A stretch of DNA of 43,517 nt from Opitutus sp. (GTDB lineage Bacteria > Verrucomicrobiota > Verrucomicrobiia > Opitutales > Opitutaceae). Positions 2,810-39,854 of this stretch are shown here, piece after piece. Both the position numbers and the translations under genes were made by a program. The stretch's first letter is position 1; every line of letters begins with the position of its first letter. The stretch is taken from contig PNJQ01000028.1 of NCBI GenBank assembly GCA_013821985.1, positions 1 to 43,517 on the forward strand, written 5' to 3'. Below the pieces are notes generated by a model that saw only the letters and a list, made by a program, of their open reading frames with translations, was not told the origin of the DNA and did not search any database.

Positions 2810-4195
2810 TCACAGCCCGTGCCGATCGACGAGATAGACGAGCGCGGCCATGGCGGCGGCGCCGAGTTCGAGTTCGCGCTTGTTCACCTTGTCGATCGTG
2901 TCGGCGCGAGTGTGGTGAATGTCGAAGTAGCGCTGCGCCTCGGGAATGAGGCCCGCGACGGTGTTGCCCTTGGCCATGAGCGGGCCGACGTCGGCGCCGC
3001 CGCGGCCGGCTTGGAAAATGAAGACGCCGTAGGGTTCGAAGAGCGGTTTAAAGCGCGCGGCCTTGAGGTGCGCGTCGCCCGCAGCGTTGCCGATGTTGAA
3101 GCCGCGGGCGGAGTAGCCGCCTCCGTCGGTTTCGAGCGCGAGGACGTGGTTCTCTTTTTTATCGCCGGCGATGCGCGCATATTCGAGCGCGCCGCGCAGG
3201 CCGTTTTCCTCGTTGGCGAAGAGCACGCAACGGATCGTGTGCTTCGGCTGGTAACCGATCGCCTTCAGAAGGCGGAGCACCTCGATCGATTGAATGCAAC
3301 CGGCGCCGTCGTCGTGCGCGCCGGGCGAGACGTCCCATGAATCGAGGTGGCCGCCGACGAGAATGACTTTTTCCGGAAACTCGGAACCCCGGATTTCGCC
3401 GATAACGTTGGCGGAGGGCGCGTCGGGGAGCCAGCGCGAGTTGATCTGCATCGTGACGGTGAGTTCCGCGTCGGCCCGGAGAGCGGCGCTCAGTTGGTTC
3501 GCGGCGAGCGTGCTCAACGCGGCGGCGGGAATGCGCGGCGCGTCGGGAAGGTAAGTCGTGTTGCCGGTGTGCGGGAGGTCGTCGAGCGCGTGCGTGAGCG
3601 AGCGGACGAGGACGCCGACGGCGCCGCGTTTCGCGGCTTCGGCGGGGCCACGGTTGCGCTGTGCACCGGCTTCGCCGTAGGCCTGGCCGGGGATGACGTA
3701 GCGCGGGTTCATGGCGCCATTGAAGAAAACGATTTTGCCTTTCACATCCGCATTTTTGAGCGCCTCGACGGACGGGAGTTCGATGACGGGCGCGGTGAGG
3801 CCGGCGGGATCGGTCGGCACGGAGCCGCCGAGGGCGAGCGCGGCGAGCGGGGTGCGCGTGCCGGCGGTGAGAAACTCGACGCGCTCCGGCGCGCCGCGTT
3901 CCCAATGCGGGACCATGACGGGTTGCAGTTCGGTGCGGTCGCAGCCGAGCGCGCGGAGCTGGGCCTCGGCCCATTTCGTCGATCCCTCATAGGCGGCGGA
4001 GCCGGAGAGTCGGCCGGGAAATTTCTCCGTCAGCTCGCGGAGTTGTTCGAAAGCGGGGCTGTCAACGAGCGCGGCGTCGTAGATGCGGCGCAGCATTTGC
4101 GCATCCCCGAGGTCGATGGGGGGCGCGGGCTTTTCCTGGGCGGGGAGGGTGGAGGCGAAAACCACCGACGCGGCGAGGAGCGGAAGAAGGCGCAT
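2810..4195 (-). CDS. Secreted M28 family zinc aminopeptidase with PA domain
   Basis: 461 residues. An N-terminal signal peptide (residues 1-19, ending LPAQ) sends it out of the cytoplasm. Residues ~110-245 resemble a protease-associated insert (KGKIVFFNGAM, GAVGVLVRSL). The catalytic part carries the full M28 metal set: H283 in GGHLDSWD, D295 in HDDGAG, the E329-E330 pair in NEENG, D357 in ETDGGG, and H428 in the HHTRADT stretch near the end. These enzymes are co-catalytic two-zinc aminopeptidases or carboxypeptidases of the periplasm or medium. Length and domain order match the glutamate carboxypeptidase/plasma-type M28 group. It probably works with the S46 and M13 peptidases in this window in peptide breakdown. 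Start ATG at 4195. Confidence 0.9.
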   Translation of the reverse strand: MRLLPLLAASVVFASTLPAQEKPAPPIDLGDAQMLRRIYDAALVDSPAFEQLRELTEKFPGRLSGSAAYEGSTKWAEAQLRALGCDRTELQPVMVPHWERGAPERVEFLTAGTRTPLAALALGGSVPTDPAGLTAPVIELPSVEALKNADVKGKIVFFNGAMNPRYVIPGQAYGEAGAQRNRGPAEAAKRGAVGVLVRSLTHALDDLPHTGNTTYLPDAPRIPAAALSTLAANQLSAALRADAELTVTMQINSRWLPDAPSANVIGEIRGSEFPEKVILVGGHLDSWDVSPGAHDDGAGCIQSIEVLRLLKAIGYQPKHTIRCVLFANEENGLRGALEYARIAGDKKENHVLALETDGGGYSARGFNIGNAAGDAHLKAARFKPLFEPYGVFIFQAGRGGADVGPLMAKGNTVAGLIPEAQRYFDIHHTRADTIDKVNKRELELGAAAMAALVYLVDRHGL

Positions 4196-4360
4196 CGCGC
4201 GAGATTTCGCCGGCGCGGTGCAGTGCGCAAGCGGGGAGTTACGACTGGCCGCACAGCGGGGTGCCGGCGCAGGCGGAACACGCGGGCGGGCGGAGGGAAA
4301 TCACACCGCGTGGATGATTCTCGCCCGTCGCCGATGGGCGCCTTTGCGCGAGGCGAAAGG

Positions 4361-5332
4361 TCAAAACCACTTCCGCCGCTTCAGATAGATGTAAGTGAGC
4401 AGCGTGAAAAACAGCACCACGCCGAGCGCGCCGCCGTAGCCGAAGCGCGAGCGAAGCTCCGGCATGCCTTCGAAGTTCATGCCATACCACGTGCCGACGA
4501 CCATGACGGGAATCGTGATCGCGGTCAGCGCGGTGAGAAACTTGATGCCCTCGTTCGCCTCGAAGGCCGCTTTGTTCAGGTAGATGTCGAACGCCATCAT
4601 CAGGCGTTCGTGGTAGCTGTTTGCGATGTCCTCGAAGCGCACGAGGTTGTCGCGCAGATCGCGATAATAGGGGAGCAGCGTGTTGCGAATCATCTTCGAG
4701 TCGCCGCGGGCGAGGCGGTCGATCACGTCGCGCTGCGGGCGCACGATCTGGCGGAGCTTCGAAAAATCCGAGCGCGCGTGCAGCATCTCCTGCATGAAAG
4801 ATTCCGACGTCGATTTGCGCAGCATCACGTCCTCCAGTTCCTCGAGCTCCGTGCGGAGTTCGTCGAGCACGGGCGCGAAGTTGTCGATCATCAGGTCGAG
4901 CATCGTGTGCGCGATGCGATCGGGACCGCGCGGAGCGAGGGCGGTGTTTTTCGCGGCGCGGTCCTTCAGCGTCGTGACCGACCGCAGCGGGTGCCGGTGG
5001 TAGGTGACGAAGAAATCCTTGCCCAGGAACATATCGAGTTCGGTCGTGGCGAACTTCTCCTTGCGCGTGAAATCCACGGCGTGCGTCACCATGAACAGGT
5101 AATCCTCGTAGTCCTCGATCTTCGGCAGGTCGCTCGGCGCGACGCAGTCCTCGATGGCAAGCGGGTGGAACTGAAAGACGCCCTCGAGGATCGATTTCGT
5201 TTCCTCGTCCGTCGGGTTGTCGAGATCGACCCAGAGAATGAGGCCCTTGTCGGCGCGAACGAGGCGCAGCGCCTCCACTTCGAGGTCGCGACCGACCAGC
5301 TTGCCGTCGCTGAAAATGAAGGAATGAATCAT
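4361..5332 (-). CDS. corA: CorA family magnesium/cobalt channel
   Basis: 323 residues, close to the classical CorA length (316 in E. coli). The large N-terminal cytoplasmic domain is followed by two C-terminal membrane helices; the first ends in VGTWYGMNFEGMPEL, containing the selectivity-filter YGMNF motif that defines the family. The short C-terminus ends in basic residues (KRRKWF), as expected for a cytoplasmic tail. The frame is open 76 codons further upstream, but similarity starts at the ATG at 5332 (MIHSFIF), which I chose. It is transcribed divergently from the S46 peptidase gene, with 170 bases between the starts. The role is Mg2+ (also Co2+/Ni2+) uptake as a pentamer. Confidence 0.93.
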   Translation of the reverse strand: MIHSFIFSDGKLVGRDLEVEALRLVRADKGLILWVDLDNPTDEETKSILEGVFQFHPLAIEDCVAPSDLPKIEDYEDYLFMVTHAVDFTRKEKFATTELDMFLGKDFFVTYHRHPLRSVTTLKDRAAKNTALAPRGPDRIAHTMLDLMIDNFAPVLDELRTELEELEDVMLRKSTSESFMQEMLHARSDFSKLRQIVRPQRDVIDRLARGDSKMIRNTLLPYYRDLRDNLVRFEDIANSYHERLMMAFDIYLNKAAFEANEGIKFLTALTAITIPVMVVGTWYGMNFEGMPELRSRFGYGGALGVVLFFTLLTYIYLKRRKWF

Positions 5333-5502
5333 GCGCTCGCGAGGATGCTGCGCTGCGCTCCGGCGGTGGCAAGCCCGGGCTCGTCCGCGGCCGCGGGGGT
5401 TCGTCGCGGCGAATGCGCCGGCTGTCGCGAATTGGCCCGGCTTGGCCCAAAACGGGATTGTCTCGCGCGCGGCCGGCCGCGTTACTCGATGCTCCTTTCC
5501 CC

Positions 5503-7575
5503 ATGAAACTCCCCCGTGTTTTGCGAATTGTTTCCCTGGCGGCCGCGGTCGGTGCCGCACTGATCGTGCGCGCCGACGACGGCATGTGGCTGCTGAATAA
5601 CCCGCCGCTCGCGCAATTGAAGGAGCGCTACGGCTTCGAGCCGTCCGCCGCGTGGCTCGAGCACGTGCAGCGTTCCGCGGTGCGCTTCAACAACGGCGGC
5701 TCCGGTTCGTTCGCGTCGGCGGACGGCCTGATCATCACGAATCACCACGTGGGTTTCGATGCGATCTTCAAGCTCAGCACCAAGGAGCACGATCTGCTCA
5801 AGGAAGGCTTCCATGCAAAGACCCGCACCGAGGAGCGCAAGTGCGTCGATCTCGAGTTGAACGTGCTGCAATCGATCGAGGACGTCACCGCGAAGGTGAA
5901 CGCCGGCGTGCGCGCCGACATGTCGCCGGCCGAAGTGCTCGCCGCGCGCAACACCGCCAAGGCGGCGATCGAAAAGGAATCCTTCGACGCCACCGGTCTG
6001 CGCAGCGACGTCGTGGTGCTCTACCAGGGCGCGCAATACCACCTCTACCGCTACAAGGTCTATACGGACGTGCGGCTCGTGTTCGCGCCCGAGGAACAGG
6101 CGGCGTTCTTCGGTGGTGATCCGGACAACTTCGAGTATCCGCGCTTCAATTTGGACATCGCCCTCTTTCGCGCCTACGAGAACGGCCAGCCTGCGAAGGT
6201 GGAGCATTTCCTGAAATGGAATCCGGCCGGCACGCAGGAGGGCGATCTGGTGTTCCTCGCCGGCCATCCCGGCACGACGCAGCGGCTCATCACGATGGCC
6301 GAACTCGAATATGCGCGCGACATCCAGGTGCCGGGCGCGCTGCGCTGGATGAAGAGCCGCGAAGTGCTGCTGAACAGCTTTGCCAAACGCGGGCAGGAAA
6401 ACGCGCGCCAGGTGCAGGACGAAATTCGCGGCATCGAAAACAGCCGCAAGGTCTATGACGGCCGCATCGGCGGACTGCTCGATCCGGAGCTGGTTGCCGC
6501 CAAACAGGCCGAGGAGGACGCGCTCCGCAAGTTTGCGCAGGATAAACCGGAACTCGGGGCGAGCGACGCCTGGGACAAAATCGCCGAGGCGCAGCGCGTC
6601 ATCGCGAGCACCGCGGTGCGGAACAGTTTCCTCGAGACGTATTTCTTCAACTCCGACCTCTACAAGGTCGCGCGCGACCTCGTCCGCTCGTCAATCGAGG
6701 GCGCCAAGCCGAACGGCGAGCGCCTGCCTGAATATCGCGATTCCGCCAAAACGACCTTCGAACTCGCGCTCTTCTCCGCGAAGCCGATCCACCCGGAAGT
6801 GGAGAAACTGAAGATCGAGCACTACCTCACGCTCATGGCGATGGAACTTGGAGCGAATGATCCCGCGGTGCAGACCGCGCTTGGTGGCAAATCCCCTGCG
6901 GCCCGCGCGGCCGAACTCGTGCAGGGCACGCAGGTGCTCGCTGTCGCACACCGCAAGGCGCTCTACGGCCAGCCCGCCGCCGCACTGGCCAAGACGAACG
7001 ATTCGATGGTGCAGCTTGCGCTGGCGATGGAGCCGTTCGCCCGCGCCACGCGCAAGACCATCGATCAGCAGAACGAGGCGAAGCAGCAGGCGCACGCGCG
7101 CATCGCCAAGGTCCGTTACGCGAAGGACGGCGACAAAGTTTCGCCCGACGCGACGTTCACGCTGCGCCTGTCCTACGGCGCCGTGAAAGGCATCGATGGT
7201 GCCGGCAACCAGGTGCCCGCCTACACGAAGCTCGGCGGCATGGCGGAGCGCGCGGCGGAGCGCGGCAACGTCTCGCCCTACAATCTGCCCGAGAGCTGGG
7301 CGGCGGCGAAGGGCCGGCTGAACGCCGACGTGCCGTTCAATTTCATCAGCACCTGCTACAGCATCGGTGGAAATTCGGGCAGCCCCGTGATGAATCGGAA
7401 CGGCGAGTTCATCGGCATCATCTTCGACGGCAGCATCGAGACGCTGGTGTGGAACTACGCGTTCACCGAGGCGCGCGCCCGTTCGATCAGCGTGGATGTG
7501 CGTGGCATCATCGAAGCGATGCGCAGCGTTTACGGCGCGGATGCGCTGGTGGACGAGTTGCTCGGGAAGAAGTAA
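5503..7575 (+). CDS. S46 family dipeptidyl-peptidase (DPP7-like)
   Basis: 690 residues with a signal peptide (about 1-24, ending VRADD). S46 peptidases are chymotrypsin-fold serine enzymes of the periplasm that remove dipeptides from peptide N-termini. The triad is visible: H82 in GLIITNHHVG, D218 in NFEYPRFNLDIALF, and S625 in GGNSGSPVMN. Eighteen residues after the serine, G643 in FDGSIE stands where DPP7 has Gly and DPP11 has Arg (S648/G666 and S655/R673 in the Porphyromonas enzymes, from memory), so a hydrophobic P1 preference is expected rather than Asp/Glu. The WLLNNPP start after the signal is typical. The ATG at 5503 is chosen because the signal peptide starts there; the open frame extends 30 codons upstream without similarity. 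Confidence 0.93.
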   Translation: MKLPRVLRIVSLAAAVGAALIVRADDGMWLLNNPPLAQLKERYGFEPSAAWLEHVQRSAVRFNNGGSGSFASADGLIITNHHVGFDAIFKLSTKEHDLLKEGFHAKTRTEERKCVDLELNVLQSIEDVTAKVNAGVRADMSPAEVLAARNTAKAAIEKESFDATGLRSDVVVLYQGAQYHLYRYKVYTDVRLVFAPEEQAAFFGGDPDNFEYPRFNLDIALFRAYENGQPAKVEHFLKWNPAGTQEGDLVFLAGHPGTTQRLITMAELEYARDIQVPGALRWMKSREVLLNSFAKRGQENARQVQDEIRGIENSRKVYDGRIGGLLDPELVAAKQAEEDALRKFAQDKPELGASDAWDKIAEAQRVIASTAVRNSFLETYFFNSDLYKVARDLVRSSIEGAKPNGERLPEYRDSAKTTFELALFSAKPIHPEVEKLKIEHYLTLMAMELGANDPAVQTALGGKSPAARAAELVQGTQVLAVAHRKALYGQPAAALAKTNDSMVQLALAMEPFARATRKTIDQQNEAKQQAHARIAKVRYAKDGDKVSPDATFTLRLSYGAVKGIDGAGNQVPAYTKLGGMAERAAERGNVSPYNLPESWAAAKGRLNADVPFNFISTCYSIGGNSGSPVMNRNGEFIGIIFDGSIETLVWNYAFTEARARSISVDVRGIIEAMRSVYGADALVDELLGKK

Positions 7576-28799: not shown

Positions 28800-28868
28800 G
28801 GCCATTAAGCCCCCAATTCCAAACAGGGCTATCGTATCGTGCGGTGTGCTGCGTTACCCAGTGCACCC

Positions 28869-29777
28869 ATGAAATTCTCCCGCTGGGTCACTCCCCTGAT
28901 CCTCGCAAGTTTCACCGCCGCCACTGCGTGGTCGCAGGTGGTAGATTTCGTCTCGGTCAGTTTTCGGCAACAGATGGTGCAAACGGGAACGGCGACAGTT
29001 GGCCTGAGTTCCGGAACTCCCTTCACTTTTCGCGCCGGTGTGGACGGTAACAACCTAGGCCAAACGAGCCCGATCTCCGCTGCCACCATCACGCCGCCCT
29101 CGGGCTCACCACTTAGTCTCACGGCCTCGCTCTTTGGGGGGAACTACGAGTGGGAGTATGTATCCGGGGGTTACTCCACGCTGAACGACCTCCTCGTGGC
29201 ATTCCCCGCGAATGGCGGCAGCTACACGCTTGCGCTGACCGGAACGCCGAACGGGAACACGGGAATCGTGGTTCCCGGCTTTTCGTCGACTGTGTTGCAG
29301 GCGCCGGTGTTGACGCTCAGTGGCGGAACATGGAACGGCGGTGTCTATCAACTCACGCCCGGGAGCGGACTCGGCGTCGAGTTCAACTCGCCCTTCTCGT
29401 CCTCTCCGGGAGGCACCGACGCTTTCCATTACTACGTGGACGCGAACGGGAACTTCAACGGTTCGATCACGACGCCGGAAGGGTTTCTCAACTACAATTC
29501 GGAGACATCCTCGTCCGTGAGTGGCTCGATTTCCACCTTCAACATTGGCGCGAGTTCATTCAACGCCGGCCAATCCTACACCTTCCTCGTCTCCTACGAG
29601 CAGATCCTCTCGTGGGATGCGACCGCTTACGGCAATGCCGTCACGGCCGTGGGTCTCTTCGAAATTAGAACCTCGTTCACCGTCCAAGCGATTCCCGAGC
29701 CGTCGACCTACGCCGCGCTTTTCGGCGCGGTGGGCTTGCTCGGCGTGGTGGCGCAGCGTCGTCGCCGGGTGGTCTGA
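28869..29777 (+). CDS. PEP-CTERM sorting-domain surface protein
   Basis: 302 residues. An N-terminal signal peptide (about 1-22, ending TAWSQ) and a C-terminal sorting signal IPEPSTYAALFGAVGLLGVVAQRRRR: P-E-P motif, hydrophobic helix, Arg cluster. PEP-CTERM proteins are cleaved and attached by an exosortase and are often exopolysaccharide-linked. The body is Ser/Thr/Gly/Asn-rich and beta-like, with no known domain; it lacks charged residues compared with its neighbours. ATG at 28869 is the signal peptide start. An intrinsic terminator follows. No exosortase gene is in the window. Confidence 0.88.
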   Translation: MKFSRWVTPLILASFTAATAWSQVVDFVSVSFRQQMVQTGTATVGLSSGTPFTFRAGVDGNNLGQTSPISAATITPPSGSPLSLTASLFGGNYEWEYVSGGYSTLNDLLVAFPANGGSYTLALTGTPNGNTGIVVPGFSSTVLQAPVLTLSGGTWNGGVYQLTPGSGLGVEFNSPFSSSPGGTDAFHYYVDANGNFNGSITTPEGFLNYNSETSSSVSGSISTFNIGASSFNAGQSYTFLVSYEQILSWDATAYGNAVTAVGLFEIRTSFTVQAIPEPSTYAALFGAVGLLGVVAQRRRRVV

Positions 29778-31070: not shown

Positions 31071-32522
31071 TTACTTCAGCGCGGGCGCGGTGCCGCCGGA
31101 GCGCGCCTTCGCGATTTCGAGCTCGCCTTGGCGGGCGTAGTCGATCGCTTCGGCGAGGATGCGCGCGGCTTCCTGCGAGGCATGGAAGCCCATCGAGTTC
31201 TCCGCATAGACCCAGTCGAGCCGCCACTGCGCTTTGCGTTGCAGCGCGCGCGCTTTCTCGAGTTGCGCGTCGGTCGCGCCGGCTTGGCGCGCGGCGACCA
31301 GCGCGTCGATCAGGGCGACGAGAGCTTCCTGCCCACGGGTCAGCAGGGCGCGATTGCGATCCTGAATGATGATGACGCGCGACGTGAGTTCGGTTTCGGA
31401 AACGCGGTGACACGTTTGGCACGCGGCGGCGAGGTTGAGCAGGGGCGAGCGCACGTGATGGCTACTGACCTTGATCGCGCCTTCGCGTTGATAGGGCATG
31501 TGGCAATCGGCGCAGGCCACCCCGCTGCGTGCGTGGATGCCCTGGCTCCACATTTCGAATTCCGGGTGCTGTGCCTTGAGCACGGCGGCGCCGGTCTCGG
31601 CGTGGACCCAGTCCTTGTAGCCGGCGTCGTCGTAATATTTTTCCTCGTGCTCGACGCGGAGGCCGTTGTCCCACGGGTGCGTGACGAGCTTCTGGTCTCC
31701 CTTGAAGTAATATTCGTTGTGGCACTGCGCGCAGACGAGCGAGCGCATCTCCTGGCGGTTGGCGTCGGTGTTGGGCTCGTAATTGCCTTCGCGGCCTTCG
31801 CTGCGCCAGCGTTCGATGCTGGGGAGGTGCGGTGTGGGATAATCGGATTTCGCGAGCGCGCGGATGCCGTTGAGGAAGGCCGGGCGTGAAACGCGGAGGT
31901 TCATCGTCTCGGCGTCGTGACAGTCGATGCACGACACCGGATGTTCCACGAGTTTCGTCACCTCGGTGTAGGGCTGCGGCGAGATGACCTCGAAGCCCTT
32001 TTGGATCTGCGCTTCGCGGTGTTCCGGACCAGCGGGCGCTCCCGCGGCGAGGCCGGCCTTGATGTAGGCGGGGATGACGGAAGCGTGACACTGGAGACAC
32101 GCGCCGGGCTGCTTGAACTTATGCACGCGCTCGGTCTCGCGCTGGTCGGCGAGCATGTAGGCGTGGCCGCGCTCTTCGCGATAATCGATCGAGAATGCGT
32201 AGCCGGCGAAGATGCGGCGCCACACCGGGTCCTTGTCGAGATGCTGGAACGCCTCGCTGCCGCCGTATTTCGTGAACTGCTTGTCCACCGTGCGGCGGTA
32301 GCTGTCGAACTGGCGCGGATAATTTTTTCCCCACAGTGCCGGATCGGTGACGGTGTCATCGACATTGACGACGCGGAACACGTGCTGCGTCGCCTCCGCC
32401 TTGCGCGCCACGATGTTCTGGTAAAGCAGCAGCACGCCGAACGTGACGACGGCGAAAAACGCGATGAGCCCGACGTAGGCGAGGGGAGTGAGGCCGCGGG
32501 TGGAGGTGAGACGGGAGTTCAT
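31071..32522 (-). CDS. nrfA: Ammonia-forming cytochrome c nitrite reductase, catalytic subunit (CxxCH active-site variant)
   Basis: 483 residues, near the ~480 of E. coli NrfA. It reduces nitrite to ammonium with six electrons in the periplasm. An uncleaved N-terminal helix (about 13-34) probably anchors it. Five heme motifs are visible: C142LQCH, C198IDCH, C264AQCH, C337ADCH and C368QTCH. The first is the active-site heme, which in most NrfA is CxxCK; here it has His. The rest of the active site is present: SRP with R213, NEYYF (E270, Y271, Y272) after heme 3, and the K316-AQ-H319 stretch. It is read together with nrfH, 22 bases after the nrfH stop. No nrfEFG lyase genes are seen. Confidence 0.94.
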   Translation of the reverse strand: MNSRLTSTRGLTPLAYVGLIAFFAVVTFGVLLLYQNIVARKAEATQHVFRVVNVDDTVTDPALWGKNYPRQFDSYRRTVDKQFTKYGGSEAFQHLDKDPVWRRIFAGYAFSIDYREERGHAYMLADQRETERVHKFKQPGACLQCHASVIPAYIKAGLAAGAPAGPEHREAQIQKGFEVISPQPYTEVTKLVEHPVSCIDCHDAETMNLRVSRPAFLNGIRALAKSDYPTPHLPSIERWRSEGREGNYEPNTDANRQEMRSLVCAQCHNEYYFKGDQKLVTHPWDNGLRVEHEEKYYDDAGYKDWVHAETGAAVLKAQHPEFEMWSQGIHARSGVACADCHMPYQREGAIKVSSHHVRSPLLNLAAACQTCHRVSETELTSRVIIIQDRNRALLTRGQEALVALIDALVAARQAGATDAQLEKARALQRKAQWRLDWVYAENSMGFHASQEAARILAEAIDYARQGELEIAKARSGGTAPALK

Positions 32523-32544
32523 GGCAGAGAGGGAAAGGAAAATT

Positions 32545-33021
32545 TCAAATCAGCGGGCCGTGGCCGACGTCGCGGTGGCAATGGACGCAGTCGAGCATCT
32601 CGCGGCGCTGGCCGGGATGGGTGTTGATGCCGGAGACAATCTGCTCGTGACAGGCCACGCAGTTGCGCTGGAGCACGGTGGAGTTTTTCGGACGGATCAT
32701 GATCGGCTCGTGGAAATCCTGCAGCGTGAAACCCTTCGAGTGCCAGTAGCCGTTCTCCGCCTTGGTGAGGTATTTTCCGATGAAGTCGTGCGGCGTGTGG
32801 CAATCGTTGCACGTCGCGACGGCGTGGTGCGGCGACTTGAGCCAGCCGTCGTATTGCTCGCGCATGATGTGGCAGTTCACGCACGCCTTCGGATCGCTGG
32901 AGAAATACGAGAGACCCTCCGCGTAGTAGAAGGTGTAGGTGCCGAGACCGGCCAACATCCCGATCACGCCCGCCAGAGTGAGAGCGAGAAAGCCGTGCTT
33001 GCGGTTCAACGGCGTGGGCAT
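32545..33021 (-). CDS. nrfH: Cytochrome c nitrite reductase membrane subunit (tetraheme NrfH)
   Basis: 158 residues. One N-terminal membrane helix (about 11-32) is followed by four heme motifs: C47VNCH, C71NDCH, C121VACH and C145VHCH. The first is CxxCHIM, where M53 is the likely sixth ligand of the NrfH quinol-site heme. NrfH takes electrons from menaquinol and hands them to NrfA, which is encoded next. The spacing of 22 bases and the order nrfH-nrfA are the classical arrangement. Start ATG at 33021. Confidence 0.94.
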
Positions 33022-33156: not shown

Positions 33157-34818
33157 TCAGCCCAAGTTGCAGGCCGGACCCGTTAGGGTGAGGCTGGCGT
33201 AGGGCAGCTCCGCGACGAGGCGCCAGCTGTGGTCCGCGACGGCGCCGCATTGCATGGTGCCGCCGAGTTCGGCGACGCGCCGTTCGATGTTGCGCAGGCC
33301 GTCGCCGCTGCCGGTGCCGCTGCTCGATGGACTGACGCCATTATTGAGCCACTCGAGCTGGAGAAATCCCGGCGTGGCGGAGAACCGCAGACTCGCCACC
33401 GTCGGACGGGCGTGGCGGACCGCGTTGCTGGCGAGTTCGCGGCAGATGAAGTAGAGGTGCGTTTGCGCGTCGCGCGAGAGGCCGTCGAGCGCGCCGTCGG
33501 GAATCGCCAGTTCGAATTCGCAGCGCGCGAACTGTTCGAGGTGGCGCTCGATGCGCTCGAGCGCGGTCTCGAGGTCGCGTTCGCGCAGTTCCTCGGGCTC
33601 GAGTTCGAGGATCAGGTTGCGCAAGTCGGAGGAGGCCTGCTGAAGCATGCCGTTGATCGCGGAGATCTGCTCCGCGCGCGGGGCGAGGCCCTGTTCGGCG
33701 GCGGTTTGCACGGCGGCGAGCTGAAGCCCGGCGGCGTAGATGGATTGAATCGGACCATCGTGGATGTTGCTGGCGAGCCGGAGACGCAGCGTCTCGTTGG
33801 CCTCGGCATCGCGGCGCGCGAGGTCGGGGTTGGCGCGCTCGAGCTGGCGGCGCATTTCATCCTCGAGCATTCGGCCCCAGCGGAGCTGCCCGGCGATGAG
33901 GCGCGCAATCTCGCCGAATTCCGTGCGGGCGTTGAGCAATCCGGTGAGATGGGCGGGCACGCGGCTTTCGAGGCTGCGCGTGATCAGGCCGAGCGGTCGC
34001 AGCACGAGATACGCCACGACGGCGATGAGGAGCGCCACCGCCACGATCGCCCCGAGACTCACGTAGATGACGCGGCGAATGAACGCCTGGCGCGCCGCCT
34101 CGAGGAGATCAAAATTGAAGCGCACATCGAGCTGCACCAGCGGCGCGCCATCGGGGCCGTGGAGCACTCGGCGGAACTCGTGCAGCAGACCGGTGGCGGG
34201 CAACACGGCGTCGGCGGGATGGACGGAGATGCGCGCGCCGACGATCGTGTTGAGCTGGGCAATCCAGGCCTCGTCCCAGCGCCGGCCGAGCAGCAGGTAG
34301 CCGCGCACGGGCGTCTGGTGCCGCCAGAATTTCGCGTCCTGAATCGCGGCACCGAAGATCTCCCACAGCACGCCGTCGATCAGGGTGAAGTAGCGGAACG
34401 TGTAGCGGTCGTTCATCGCCCGCTGCAACGCGGCGGGGCTCGCGAACGGAACCGGCAGGCGGCGGTAGTCCTTGTCGATCGTGTGGACGAGTTGCAGCTG
34501 CGCATCGAGCACCCAGATCGCGTCGCCGCCGTTGGGAATGCCGACGATGTTATCGACGTTGTCGGCGGCCCACCGGGGATCGGGCTTGTCCATGAACTGC
34601 ACCATGTCGTCCCACCACGCGTAACTGGAAACGAGGGAATCGAGTCCGGCGCCGTGGAGATTTGTTGCCGTGTCGAAGCGCGCTGCGCGTTCGGCGGAGA
34701 GGTCGCGCAGCAGGCCGTTGATCTCGTCACGTCCGTCCTCGAGCACAGCCCAGTAGAGCGTCGCGAATCCGGCGCAGACCAGCAGGGTGACGAGGGCGAG
34801 TCGGCTGAGGAGATTCAT
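33157..34818 (-). CDS. Membrane sensor histidine kinase with CHASE4 domain (NarL-type kinase group)
   Basis: 553 residues. TM1 at about 4-24, a periplasmic CHASE4 domain (about 55-205; AWWDDMVQFMDKPDPRWAADN is the hallmark), TM2 at about 250-272, a HAMP-like linker, then a HisKA_3 helix with LASNIHDGPIQSIYAAGLQL, the phosphorylated H353. The ATPase has its N-box at ELASNAVRHA (N465) and a GDGLRNIERR box at about 505-514; the usual D-x-G-x-G stretch is replaced by LNNGV. Its partner response regulator is not in the window. It lies 135 bases before nrfH on the same strand, so a role in sensing nitrite, nitrate or redox state is an inference. The ATG at 34818 is preferred because TM1 begins there. 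Confidence 0.85.
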   Translation of the reverse strand: MNLLSRLALVTLLVCAGFATLYWAVLEDGRDEINGLLRDLSAERAARFDTATNLHGAGLDSLVSSYAWWDDMVQFMDKPDPRWAADNVDNIVGIPNGGDAIWVLDAQLQLVHTIDKDYRRLPVPFASPAALQRAMNDRYTFRYFTLIDGVLWEIFGAAIQDAKFWRHQTPVRGYLLLGRRWDEAWIAQLNTIVGARISVHPADAVLPATGLLHEFRRVLHGPDGAPLVQLDVRFNFDLLEAARQAFIRRVIYVSLGAIVAVALLIAVVAYLVLRPLGLITRSLESRVPAHLTGLLNARTEFGEIARLIAGQLRWGRMLEDEMRRQLERANPDLARRDAEANETLRLRLASNIHDGPIQSIYAAGLQLAAVQTAAEQGLAPRAEQISAINGMLQQASSDLRNLILELEPEELRERDLETALERIERHLEQFARCEFELAIPDGALDGLSRDAQTHLYFICRELASNAVRHARPTVASLRFSATPGFLQLEWLNNGVSPSSSGTGSGDGLRNIERRVAELGGTMQCGAVADHSWRLVAELPYASLTLTGPACNLG

Positions 34819-34936
34819 CCGGAGTGGGGCGGAAGCTACCGCGAGGTGCGGGAGGGTCAATCCGGCTTCCGCCCGCCGGCGCAGGCGCGGCCACAGGGCG
34901 CCTTCCGCGGGTGCGTGTTTCACCCGAAAATGCAAT

Positions 34937-35760: not shown

Positions 35761-35802
35761 CGTTGAAAGGAAGGACGCGGCGGCGCGTTGCCTCTTCCGG
35801 CG

Positions 35803-37527
35803 TTATTCTTCGCCGCCGTCTTCTTCCCCGGCGTCGGAACCGTCGTCAGATTTCTTGCGGCTGCGCGCGCGCTTGGCCTTCGAGTCCTTGGCGTTGAGCC
35901 AGAGCTCGCCCTTGGCGTTGCGGTTCAGCCAGAAAATCTCGCCGTTGTGTTCGCCAAAGGTCGGCTTCGTCTTGGTGTCGTCCGGGATGTTGAGGCCGGC
36001 CGCGACGAGCGCTTCGAGAATCTCGATCGCGGGGCGGTCAAGTTGCTGTGCGAGGTCGTCGATTTTCGCCGCGAAACCGTCACCGCGTTTCTTCGGCTGC
36101 AGGAGCAGGCGGACGGCTTCGAGCGCGCCGGCGGGCACGCGTGCGGCCGCCGCGGCGCCGCTGTTGATGATCGGCGGCAGATCGCCCGGCTGAGCCAGAG
36201 CGGGGGCCGCGATTGCCTCGGATTGTCCGGCCGCCTCGCGCGGGGCTCCGGCGTTCGATTCGCTCTCCCCGCCTTCGTCGCCCTGCTCACCGGTGCCGGT
36301 GTCGCCTTGGCCGCGGCTCTTGCGGGTGTTGATCCAAATCTCCCCGCGGTGATTCTTGTCCATCCAGTAGAGGAAGCCGTTCTCCTCATGGAAGAGCGGC
36401 TTTTCCGCGCCGTCTTCCTTCAGTTTGAGGCCGACTTCGGCGAGCTGCGCGAGCAGGCCGGCGTCGTCGGTCTTCAACGCCTTGGTCAGATAACCGAAGC
36501 TGCCCGACCAACCATGGCCGCGCCGGTTGCGACGCATCATGCCGCGGACCTTGTCGAGGAAAGTTCTCGGCGCGGACGACGATGGCGCCTGCGCTTGGGG
36601 CGTTGGGGCGGAGCCGCCCTCCCCGGGTGCGCCGGCGTCGCCGCCGGGCGTTTTCGCATCGCGCGAACGTTCTTCGCGACGCTCGCGGCGTTCGTCCCGT
36701 CGCTCGTCGCGCCGCGGTTCACGCTGCTCCGCGTGGGAGCCGCCGCCGCTGCTCGGCATTTCTTGCGGCGCTTCCTCATCGGTCAGGCGCTTGCCTTGGG
36801 CGATGCGGAAAACAGGTTCGGGTTTCTCGCGCGTGTTGATCCAGATTTCGCCGCGCCGATTGATGTTCACCCAATAAAGGTCGCCCTCGAATTCGACATA
36901 GACGGGCTTGGCGTTTTCGTCGGCCGGGATTTGCAGGCCGCACTCGACCAGCGCGCCCTTGATGTCGGCTTCCTCCATCTTCCATTTCTTCGCGAGATAA
37001 TCGGTGCCTACGCTCATGCCCGGACCGCGCTGATTGCGGCGCATGTGCGGACGGAGCGCGTCAAAGAAAGTCGGCAGCTCGTCTTCGGCCGCGAGCTTCT
37101 CCCAATCGTCCTTCTCGCCGTTCTCGTCTTCCGGCGCGTCGGGGTCCTGATCGCGCGATGTATCGACCGGCCGGCGGAAACCGTCGTCCGCGCCGGGCTT
37201 TTCCTCGGCAAGGAAAACATCGGCGGCGTCCTCGGCGGCCTGCGCTGCGCTCTGGCTGCTGCCGGCCTTGAACTTGGCTTCGAACTCGGCGCGCAGCTTG
37301 TCGGCTTCCGCGCGGGCGGCGGCGGCGGCGGCATCCTCGAGCGTCCAGTCGCGTTGCGTCGTGCGACGCACGAGGCCGGTGAACGCGAGCAGGTTGTCGG
37401 GTTGCGTGTGAAAATTGATGATCTCCCAACCTTCCTGACCGAGGTCGTTGAGAAATTTTTCCAGCAGAGCCGGCGACGCGAAGCCGCCCTTGCCGCTGGT
37501 GATGACTTTGTATTCCCAGTTGGACAT
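35803..37527 (-). CDS. DUF4177-like protein with three 80-residue repeats (unknown function)
   Basis: 574 residues from the ATG at 37527. Residues 1-56 are a DUF4177-like head (SNWEYKVITSGKGGF, EGWEIINFHTQPDNLL). An acidic/Ala stretch (60-150) leads into three repeats, at 154-233, 323-402 and 468-547, that align end to end with no gap. Fixed positions in the repeat are R6, RG14-15, G17, L25, L40, GL44-45, KP54-55, G62, W66, N70, GE73-74, W76 and N78. The first half of each looks like a helix-turn-helix (AKKWKMEEADIKGALVECGL; QQLDRPAIEILEALVAAGL) and the second half a two-stranded wing. The first two are joined by an Arg/Glu-rich linker (RREPRRDERRDER-type, 265-290). I do not recognise the repeat. 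Nucleic acid binding is an inference. Ends with an acidic tail. Confidence 0.8.
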   Translation of the reverse strand: MSNWEYKVITSGKGGFASPALLEKFLNDLGQEGWEIINFHTQPDNLLAFTGLVRRTTQRDWTLEDAAAAAARAEADKLRAEFEAKFKAGSSQSAAQAAEDAADVFLAEEKPGADDGFRRPVDTSRDQDPDAPEDENGEKDDWEKLAAEDELPTFFDALRPHMRRNQRGPGMSVGTDYLAKKWKMEEADIKGALVECGLQIPADENAKPVYVEFEGDLYWVNINRRGEIWINTREKPEPVFRIAQGKRLTDEEAPQEMPSSGGGSHAEQREPRRDERRDERRERREERSRDAKTPGGDAGAPGEGGSAPTPQAQAPSSSAPRTFLDKVRGMMRRNRRGHGWSGSFGYLTKALKTDDAGLLAQLAEVGLKLKEDGAEKPLFHEENGFLYWMDKNHRGEIWINTRKSRGQGDTGTGEQGDEGGESESNAGAPREAAGQSEAIAAPALAQPGDLPPIINSGAAAAARVPAGALEAVRLLLQPKKRGDGFAAKIDDLAQQLDRPAIEILEALVAAGLNIPDDTKTKPTFGEHNGEIFWLNRNAKGELWLNAKDSKAKRARSRKKSDDGSDAGEEDGGEE

Positions 37528-37617
37528 GAGGCGCCATGCAACCCGCAACCCGACCCCTGACGCGAGACTAAACTCCGCTCGCGCAGGAGCGGGGAAGGGT
37601 GCGGTCAGAAGCGGAAT

Positions 37618-37707
37618 CTGTAGGAGCCTGCTTGCAGGCGATAAGGAACGTTCGCACCGCATTCCGCTTCGAGATCTTTTTTATCGCCTGCCAGCAGGCT
37701 CCTACAG
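37618..37707. repeat. REP-like GTAG hairpin pair (26/27 identical arms)
   Basis: Arms at 37618-37644 (plus) and 37681-37707 (minus) are 27 bases each with one mismatch, 36 bases apart. Each reads CTGTAGGAGCCTGC-tt-GCAGGCGATAA, that is GTAG followed by a 6-bp hairpin. Within the pair a second inverted match, GAAGCGGAAT / ATTCCGCTTC, joins 37608-37617 to 37661-37670. It lies between the esterase stop (minus) and the start of the repeat-protein gene (minus). Confidence 0.85.
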
Positions 37708-38886: not shown

Positions 38887-38950
38887 GACAGGTTCTACGC
38901 GCGGACGCGCCCGACGGACGACTCAATTTCGACGCGGTGCCGCGGTGTGG

Positions 38951-39026
38951 TGTGGGAGCCTGCTCGCAGGCGATTCGACGCACGCCGACCACGGGCGTCT
39001 CGCATCGTTGGGAAGCAAGCTCCTAC
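38951..39026. repeat. REP-like hairpin pair before the RsuA-type gene
   Basis: Arm 38951-38976 (plus, GTGG head, GCCTGC-tc-GCAGGC stem) and arm 39008-39026 (minus, GTAG head, GGAGC/GCTTCC-type stem), 31 bases apart, heads outward. The first arm matches the 37618 element closely, so they belong to the same family. It lies in the gap between the divergently read esterase and pseudouridine synthase genes. Confidence 0.75.
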
Positions 39027-39158
39027 AAGGAGCGCGACTGGCGCCTGCTGTGGGCGCGTTTTCACCGCGGATGGCACGGCACGGGCGTCCGCCTTGCGAG
39101 CGCTTTGGGTCGGGCTTGCGATGGCTGCGTTCCGGGCTCTGTCTTTGTTTCAACGATC

Positions 39159-39854
39159 ATGTCCCGCCGTCTCGATCAACTTCTCGCCAATCTCGGTTAC
39201 TGCTCGCGTCGCGAGGCGCGCGACTGGATCGATGCCGGGCGCATCGAAGTTGGCGGACAGATCGCCGACGATCCCGGCCAGAAATCACATCCGGCGGCCG
39301 TGCGCGTCGATGGCGAGCCACTCGACCATCCCGAGGGCCTGTTGCTCATGATGAACAAGCCGCTTGGCCGCGTCTGCTCGCACGATGCCGGCGAAGGTCC
39401 GAGTGTCTATGAGTTGTTGCCGGAGCGCTGGCGCCGCCGCAACCCGGTCGTCACGACAATTGGCCGGCTCGACAAGGAAACGAGCGGGCTGCTCCTGCTC
39501 ACCGATCAAAGCGCGCTCGTGCACCGGCTCACGTCGCCGAAGCACAAGGTCCCAAAGATTTATCGCGCTACGCTCGACGCCGACATCCCAACCGATGCGA
39601 AAGAAATCTTCGCGCGCGGCACGTTGATGCTGAAGGGCGAAACCGAACCGTGCGCTCCGGCGGAGTTGCAAGGGCTCGGTCTGCGCGAGGCGGAGCTGAC
39701 ACTCACCGAGGGACGCTATCACCAGGTGCGACGAATGTTCAGCGCGCTCGGCTGCGAGGTGGTGACGCTGCACCGCGTGCGTTTCGGCCACCTCGAACTC
39801 GGCGAGCTCGCGCCGGGCAAGTGGCGCGAGTTGCCGTTAAACGAGTTCGGCTGA
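39159..39854 (+). CDS. RsuA-family 16S rRNA pseudouridine synthase
   Basis: 231 residues. An N-terminal S4 RNA-binding domain (about 1-50; RRLDQLLANLGYCSRREARDWIDAGRIEVGG) precedes the pseudouridine synthase domain, in which GRLDKETSGLLLLT contains the catalytic D105. KVPKIYRA and GRYHQVRRMFSALGCEVVTLHR are further family marks. The size and the short S4-PUS layout fit RsuA, which modifies U516 of 16S rRNA, rather than RluB/E/F, although the distinction is not proven. The start ATG at 39159 follows the usual MSRRLDQLL opening. The gene's 3' end faces the FAH-family gene. Confidence 0.92.
   Translation: MSRRLDQLLANLGYCSRREARDWIDAGRIEVGGQIADDPGQKSHPAAVRVDGEPLDHPEGLLLMMNKPLGRVCSHDAGEGPSVYELLPERWRRRNPVVTTIGRLDKETSGLLLLTDQSALVHRLTSPKHKVPKIYRATLDADIPTDAKEIFARGTLMLKGETEPCAPAELQGLGLREAELTLTEGRYHQVRRMFSALGCEVVTLHRVRFGHLELGELAPGKWRELPLNEFG

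What the first reader, a model, noticed from the sequence alone, without database searches (positions are those of the whole stretch)
35803..37527. Undescribed triple 80-residue repeat in a DUF4177-like protein
Three repeats (residues 154-233, 323-402, 468-547) line up without a single gap and share about 15 fixed positions, including R6, RG14-15, GL44-45, KP54-55, W66, GE73-74 and W76. Each looks like a helix-turn-helix followed by a beta wing, and the first two are joined by an Arg/Glu-rich linker. I know of no family with this pattern. The head resembles DUF4177 and the tail is acidic. Gapless duplication with a stable period suggests a constrained module, perhaps for nucleic acid or ribosome binding.
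Basis: partly seen in the sequence, partly recalled or inferred. Interest (0 to 1): 0.75.

Follow-up and report, generated by a model that had tools for sequence, protein, structure and literature searches.

The report
Orphan triple-repeat protein with upstream tag
A protein found so far in one family of soil and water bacteria carries three copies of a compact domain that matches no named family, and most copies of its gene are preceded by the same short DNA signature, which suggests a nucleic-acid-binding protein that controls its own production.

Summary
Window 37527-35803 (minus strand) encodes 574 aa: a DUF4177 head and three gapless 80-aa repeats (38, 28, 25 of 80 identical; z 11-14; 19 positions shared by all three). 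The 'stable period' does not hold. In the window's family (Opitutaceae) 77 of 100 genomes searched have the repeat, 70 with exactly three copies. The copies separate by position in a tree, so the triplication is old. AlphaFold2 folds the repeat confidently (pLDDT 95.8) and gives all three copies the same element order. No family library or PDB sequence matched it convincingly, and Foldseek found no confident fold, so 'winged helix' rests on element order. The nearest lead is the IF2_N helix-turn-helix core.

New: a sharply bounded bipartite ~40-nt element precedes the gene. In 100 family genomes all 48 model hits at E<=1e-4, one per genome, lie at this gene. It shows no RNA pairing. The window's own copy is a diverged variant that the model misses.

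Best explanation: a nucleic-acid-binding protein autoregulating through this element. Binding is inferred; the predicted recognition helix is acidic, which argues against classical DNA reading.

The parts
35803..37527 (-). CDS, 574 aa: DUF4177 head, three 80-aa repeats, basic then acidic tail
   Evidence: relatives; dN below dS in the repeats
37408..37518 (-). DUF4177 match (residues 4-40)
   Evidence: Pfam PF13783, 26.8 bits vs cut-off 25; located in the genome
36829..37068 (-). Repeat 1 (residues 154-233)
   Evidence: AlphaFold2 pLDDT 95.8
36562..36828 (-). Linker 1, Arg/Glu-rich, low confidence in the model apart from a helix at residues 275-290
   Evidence: sequence
36322..36561 (-). Repeat 2 (residues 323-402); net charge positive in 19 of 20 family proteins
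35887..36126 (-). Repeat 3 (residues 468-547); Arg pair of the loop not kept
35806..35886 (-). Tail: basic KRARSRKK stretch followed by an acidic end
37534..37573 (-). Window copy (clade variant) of the upstream bipartite element, 6 nt before the ATG
   Evidence: not found by model R1, so assigned by position, spacing and conservation among close relatives

Best explanation
It is an Opitutaceae-specific, normally single-copy protein that presents a DUF4177 head and three tethered copies of one small helix-turn-helix-plus-beta-hairpin domain. Most likely it binds nucleic acid, chiefly through the Arg-rich R-R-N-x-R-G-x-G loop and the W-x-N...R-G...W-I-N-x-R hairpin of repeats 1 and 2. One target is the bipartite element upstream of its own start codon, so it limits (or tunes) its own expression. 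Repeat 3 and the head would serve assembly or a second partner. Shown by computation: repeats, fold confidence, old triplication, purifying constraint, and the element's presence and gene-specificity. Inferred: binding, autoregulation, which repeat binds, and whether the element acts as DNA or as unpaired mRNA leader.
For: Repeats constrained and ancient: R1, R2 and R3 rows each form one side of a branch (99/99, 95/52, 99/99), 59 rows; 70 of 77 positive genomes have exactly three. Loop R10 is 20 of 20 in R1 and in R2, position 11 is R or K in 19 of 20 (R1) and R in 19 of 20 (R2), N12 20 and 19 of 20, G17 20 and 20 of 20; W66 and N78 are invariant in all 59 repeats. Upstream element: the strict pattern gave 14 hits in 14 of 100 genomes, spacer always 12 although 8-14 was allowed, reversed-pattern control 0, and every hit is next to this gene by its coordinates. 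Sequence-only model R1 (37 elements): 48 hits at E<=1e-4 in 100 genomes, one per genome; 45 lie before repeat 1 on the same contig (454-574 nt, measured over the 49 such hits at E<=1e-3) and 3 at contig ends that hold the truncated gene start. In 103 genomes of the order no hit outside the family reaches 1e-4; the best is 9.6e-4. Bases upstream of the element are unconserved in the 50 standard copies. No pairing predicted, so a sequence-read site is likelier than a hairpin.
Against: No binding data. Predicted helix 3 is acidic (mean net -2.55, -2.5, -1.1 over residues 31-43 in R1, R2, R3) and the protein is net acidic (-8 to -34 over 20). Foldseek best TM 0.43, none confident. A gene-specific site may belong to an unknown other regulator. 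The window's own element is a diverged variant not found by model R1. One of 62 upstream regions (L154) lacks the element. In one reading frame the element varies most at third positions, as coding sequence would, though coding is unlikely.
Confidence: 0.38

Rival explanations
1. An RNA- or ribosome-associated factor: the repeats carry IF2_N-like cores and act on rRNA, mRNA or the initiation complex; the upstream element would be an unpaired mRNA leader bound by the protein.
For: Of 4 weak out-of-family hits among 350 genomes, 3 fall in the N-terminal domain of IF-2. IF2_N is a weak Pfam hit in 4 of 59 repeats, best E 0.021. hhalign gives probability 53.6% over 28 columns against at most 0.54% in 20 column shuffles. 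A DUF4177 protein of B. subtilis, YjzH, is listed as recovered with RNA (PMC12456014, passages seen). An S4/pseudouridine synthase gene is nearby in 11 of 25 loci. The element lies 6-39 nt from the ATG in 59 of 61 copies.
Against: The IF2_N similarity covers only the helix-turn-helix core and no other HTH family was tried as a control. OmpW scored the same (4 of 59, best 0.022) and DUF2635 slightly better (2 of 59, best 0.018). The neighbour is on the other strand and not universal. No RNA structure in the element.
Confidence: 0.27
2. A scaffold whose repeats bind proteins; the upstream element belongs to another, unidentified regulator or is an unusual promoter.
For: Net acidic protein, acidic helix 3, long low-confidence linkers, no relative orientation in the model (pTM 0.24). 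Tandem winged-helix proteins can be protein-binding (recalled).
Against: Near-invariant Arg-rich loop in R1 and R2. A dedicated regulator with one strong site per genome is less simple than autoregulation.
Confidence: 0.22
3. A classical sequence-specific transcription factor that reads DNA with helix 3 and controls many genes.
For: Helix-turn-helix-wing element order.
Against: Acidic helix 3. No second element at E<=1e-4 in any of 100 genomes; the two extra hits at E<=1e-3 lie in glycosidase-like coding sequence.
Confidence: 0.08

Closest known systems
DUF4177 (Pfam PF13783)
   Same: Head matches above the cut-off; model order strand-helix-strand-strand, the order described for PEG 446 in PMC11322243 (passages).
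   Different: The DUF4177 matches listed outside this gene family mostly lie in short open frames (one of 479 aa); here the head sits on a 574-aa multi-repeat protein.
IF2_N (Pfam PF04760), N-terminal domain of initiation factor IF-2
   Same: Strand-helix-helix core of about 28 residues with the LAK..-L...L...G pattern.
   Different: The repeat adds a first helix, an Arg-rich loop and a three-stranded part; no GTPase in this protein; no significant Pfam match (best E 0.021).
Winged-helix domains (for example the tandem modules of SelB; recalled)
   Same: Predicted order helix, strand, helix, helix, strands.
   Different: 15-residue loop after helix 3, acidic helix 3, no confident Foldseek match.

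Membership tests
DUF4177 (PF13783) | Profile score above the gathering cut-off | tested here: met
   26.8 vs 25 bits, residues 4-40, profile 1-44 of 65
DUF4177 (PF13783) | Beta-alpha-beta-beta fold | tested here: inconclusive
   Order E6-10 H19-29 E34-42 E45-55 is right, but pLDDT there is about 63-73
Sp36 (NCBIfam NF053529) | Score above the curated cut-off | tested here: not met
   23.8 vs 50 bits
IF2_N (PF04760) | Score above the gathering cut-off | tested here: not met
   Six-frame search of the window's genome, this gene included: 0 matches over the cut-off; 4 of 59 repeats at E<=1, best 0.021
IF2_N (PF04760) | Attached to the IF-2 GTPase | tested here: not met
   No GTPase family among the Pfam hits of the 574 aa
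Winged helix | Secondary-structure order | tested here: met
Winged helix | Structural superposition on known members | tested here: inconclusive
   Foldseek best E 0.13, TM 0.43, no such chain in the 50 rows shown of 717; VIA-align library not available
Winged helix | Basic recognition helix | tested here: not met
   mean net charge of residues 31-43 is -2.55, -2.5, -1.1; not all winged helices need it (recalled)
Autoregulated nucleic-acid-binding protein | Conserved site at its own gene only | tested here: met
   48 of 48 hits at E<=1e-4 in 100 genomes
Autoregulated nucleic-acid-binding protein | Protein binds that site | not testable with these tools
   needs a bench assay

The most novel reading that the evidence does not exclude
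A new nucleic-acid-binding domain, confined to one bacterial family, whose triplicated form is wired to its own gene by a dedicated bipartite site. Its two half-sites, at fixed spacing (about 21 bp centre to centre, two helical turns if it acts as DNA), are read by two different repeats, and site and repeat 2 have changed together in one clade.
Probability: 0.25. Interest if true: 0.78.

Novelty: new variant of a known kind. Interest (0 to 1): 0.55.

Why it matters
Orphan genes kept by most members of a bacterial family are hard to approach. This one now comes with a compact, confidently predicted domain, a residue-level signature, and a short candidate target sequence, so its function can be tested directly in one binding assay. 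If confirmed it would add a nucleic-acid-binding domain and a self-contained regulatory circuit, and give a lead on what the widespread DUF4177 domain is attached to.

Tried and rejected
Chance repeat or antisense artefact: rejected. The repeat pairs score far above shuffles, dN is well below dS in the repeats on the minus strand, and relatives keep that frame. The plus-strand ORF 35788-37560 is taken as its shadow.

Known domain: no library match over the repeats reached its cut-off or E<0.01. Pfam was run on the protein and on 59 repeats, NCBIfam and PHROGs on the window protein only, PDB sequences with protein and profile. PADLOC was not searched. Foldseek against PDB and viral models gave nothing confident; the full-length model had pTM 0.24, so one search carries little weight.

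Phage or plasmid cargo: no tblastn match in the phage or plasmid records and none confirmed in viral contigs with repeat 1.

Operon partner: the alpha/beta hydrolase gene is within four genes in 9 of 25 loci, the S4/pseudouridine synthase gene in 11, Hsp20 in 4 (rough gene picking, one of 26 loci dropped because no target was found). tblastn adds copies of some of these in L003, L004 and L007. No constant partner.

The element as hairpin: the GGCAT-TTGGG-ATGCC inverted repeat is not kept by compensating changes (by eye), and RNAalifold gives 0 pairs. As sigma-54 promoter: the spacing is off by one (by eye, consensus recalled). As a -10 box: no -35 conservation in 50 standard copies. As coding: the distance to the ATG falls in all three frames (26, 22, 13 of 61), and in the frame whose third positions vary most, 31 of 61 copies have no start codon after the last upstream stop.

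Repeat 2 and element changing together: across the split between nine element-variant species and four nearest others, mean identity is R1 0.785, R2 0.445, R3 0.487; between those four and farther species R1 0.596, R2 0.563, R3 0.466. This is one event, the groups were chosen after the fact, R3 is also low, L006's element was not seen, one of the four (L014, element in L085) has an odd element, and L130 (a genus mate of another of the four) has a variant-like element. So it is only a hint.

Papers: DUF4177 appears in 6 papers of the library; passages of three were seen. Searches on Opitutaceae with winged helix, Opitutus with autoregulation, and Opitutaceae with DNA-binding protein and hypothetical protein found 0 papers. 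Searches gave listings only and nothing from them is used.

Full report
Observation. The three 80-residue segments align without gaps with 38, 28 and 25 identities, z-scores 13.8, 12.1 and 11.4 against 20,000 shuffles each; the next-best ungapped 80-aa diagonal in the protein scores 19 against 139-186. Nineteen positions are shared by all three. The period is not stable.

Relatives. A scan of 84,980 species' genomes that reaches close relatives only gave 8 loci, named Opitutus, Candidatus Didemnitutus, Ereboglobus, or only Opitutia or Verrucomicrobiota. In the order, 14 of 177 genomes match, all in the window's family, where 14 of 15 drawn have it. With the repeat profile, 34 of 387 genomes of the phylum match at E<=0.01: 30 of 37 in the family and 4 weak hits among the other 350. 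Of 100 family genomes 77 match: 70 with three repeats, 5 with two, 1 with four, 1 with one (the last two in assemblies 86% and 83% complete). L008 and G091 share a contig of the same length, which ties the unnamed family f1 to Ereboglobus, hence Opitutaceae. Absence beyond the phylum was not tested in depth.

History and constraint. In a tree of 59 repeats from 20 proteins, R1, R2 and R3 each form one side of a branch (80 columns, several long branches, the R2 branch only 95/52). So the triplication predates the sampled members, and the copies have stayed distinct. Between orthologues the repeats and the head have low dN while the linkers evolve fast. Nineteen of 20 proteins keep three repeats and one (L021) has two.

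Fold. AlphaFold2 with 24 repeats gives mean pLDDT 95.8 and pTM 0.84, with H2-8, E18-21, H22-29, H33-42, E58-60, E63-69, E75-79. In the full-length model (8 sequences, mean pLDDT 64, pTM 0.24) all three segments show the same order, with low-confidence linkers, so the modules look like beads on a string. Foldseek finds no confident PDB neighbour (717 hits at E<=10, best E 0.13, TM 0.43; the 50 rows shown include roadblock-like chains and no chain described as winged helix) and none among viral models.

Family filing. The head is DUF4177. The repeat has no match over a cut-off. IF2_N is the most consistent weak lead: 3 of the 4 out-of-family profile hits lie in the N-terminal domain of IF-2 (L055-L057, read by eye from the GTPase motif and a NusA-like neighbour); 4 of 59 repeats hit IF2_N with best E 0.021, but OmpW does as well and DUF2635 reaches 0.018; and profile comparison aligns 28 helix-turn-helix columns with probability 53.6% against at most 0.54% for 20 column shuffles. 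No other HTH family was compared, so this marks an HTH-type core rather than membership.

Residue signature. In repeats 1 and 2 the loop after helix 1 reads R-R/K-N-x-R-x-x-G with R10, N12 and G17 nearly invariant, and the hairpin keeps W66, R72 and N78; repeat 3 has lost the Arg pair. Helix 3, which reads DNA in classical factors (recalled), is acidic. Repeat 2 is the most basic copy on average. The protein as a whole is acidic.

Upstream element. Listing upstream regions side by side showed a block close to GATTAGGCTSGGCAA-N7-GGCATYTGGGATG. The strict pattern GGCTSGGCA-N(8-14)-TTTGGGATG occurs 14 times in 100 family genomes, once in each of 14 genomes, always with a 12-base spacer, and each time next to this gene; the reversed control gives none. 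With 66 loci examined, the start was found in 62 and an element in 61 of these (the matrix was trained on the same regions, so this count is not independent). It lies 6-81 nt before the ATG. The 45 bases before it show at most 0.2 bits per position, apart from the last (0.7), in 50 standard copies. A sequence-only model from 37 copies found 48 hits at E<=1e-4 in 100 genomes, one per genome: 45 before repeat 1 on the same contig and 3 at contig ends with a truncated gene start. Eleven of these 48 genomes gave no row to the model (G091, G510, G534, G567, G570, G574, G576, G578, G580, G586, G587); G091 and G570 have a near-identical row in it. At E<=1e-3 there are 54 hits: 4 more at the gene and 2 inside a glycosidase-like gene. 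In 103 genomes of the order the best hit outside the family is 9.6e-4. The window and ten relatives carry a variant (gTTTAGnCTSGCGTC...GCGGGATGC, some with CCGGGTTG) that the model does not find at this gene in the window's genome; its assignment rests on position, spacing and conservation in an alignment of six sequences, the window included.

Mechanism. The element is specific to the gene, sharply bounded and without predicted pairing, with fixed spacing between its halves. The encoded protein has HTH-like modules with an Arg-rich loop. The simplest joint reading is autoregulation by the product, as DNA operator or unpaired leader. Against it stand the acidic helix 3, the acidic protein and the lack of any binding data. 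The RNA/ribosome rival keeps real weight from IF2_N and from the DUF4177 protein YjzH, which one proteomics paper lists among proteins recovered with RNA (PMC12456014, passages only).

Verdict. The repeat is real, conserved and unnamed in the libraries searched, and the upstream element makes its function testable.

Noticed in passing
window 37620-37705 and 38952-39026: Two inverted pairs of GTAGGAGCCTGCT-like sequence (two exact, two with one mismatch; 4 matches vs 0.48 expected, 1 of 100 shuffles reached 4), like REP elements, beside the genes flanking the finding.
   Followed up: partly
window 35788-37560, plus strand: A 590-aa open frame antisense to the gene, probably a shadow of high G+C codon use.
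   Followed up: partly
window 31071-33021, minus strand: Cytochrome c552 (PF02335) next to a NapC/NirT-type cytochrome (PF03264), the layout of an NrfAH nitrite reductase (the layout is recalled).
   Followed up: no
window 33157-34935, minus strand: CHASE4 sensor histidine kinase with HisKA_3.
   Followed up: no
window 28839-29777, plus strand: Protein with a PEP-CTERM sorting motif.
   Followed up: no
window 38937-39854, plus strand: S4-domain pseudouridine synthase, recurring near the gene in 11 of 25 loci.
   Followed up: partly
L203 about 1253-1285 and L202 about 1262-1294: Partial matches to the upstream element inside a glycosidase-like coding sequence (GKGPSIWDAF) in two genomes of one genus; probably chance.
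   Followed up: partly
L021 (G164): A member that keeps repeats 1 and 2 but not 3, with a long Pro/Ala-rich tail in its place.
   Followed up: no
window 3347-5506, plus strand: A 719-aa open frame with no Pfam match at E<=1e-4; not checked for being coding.
   Followed up: no
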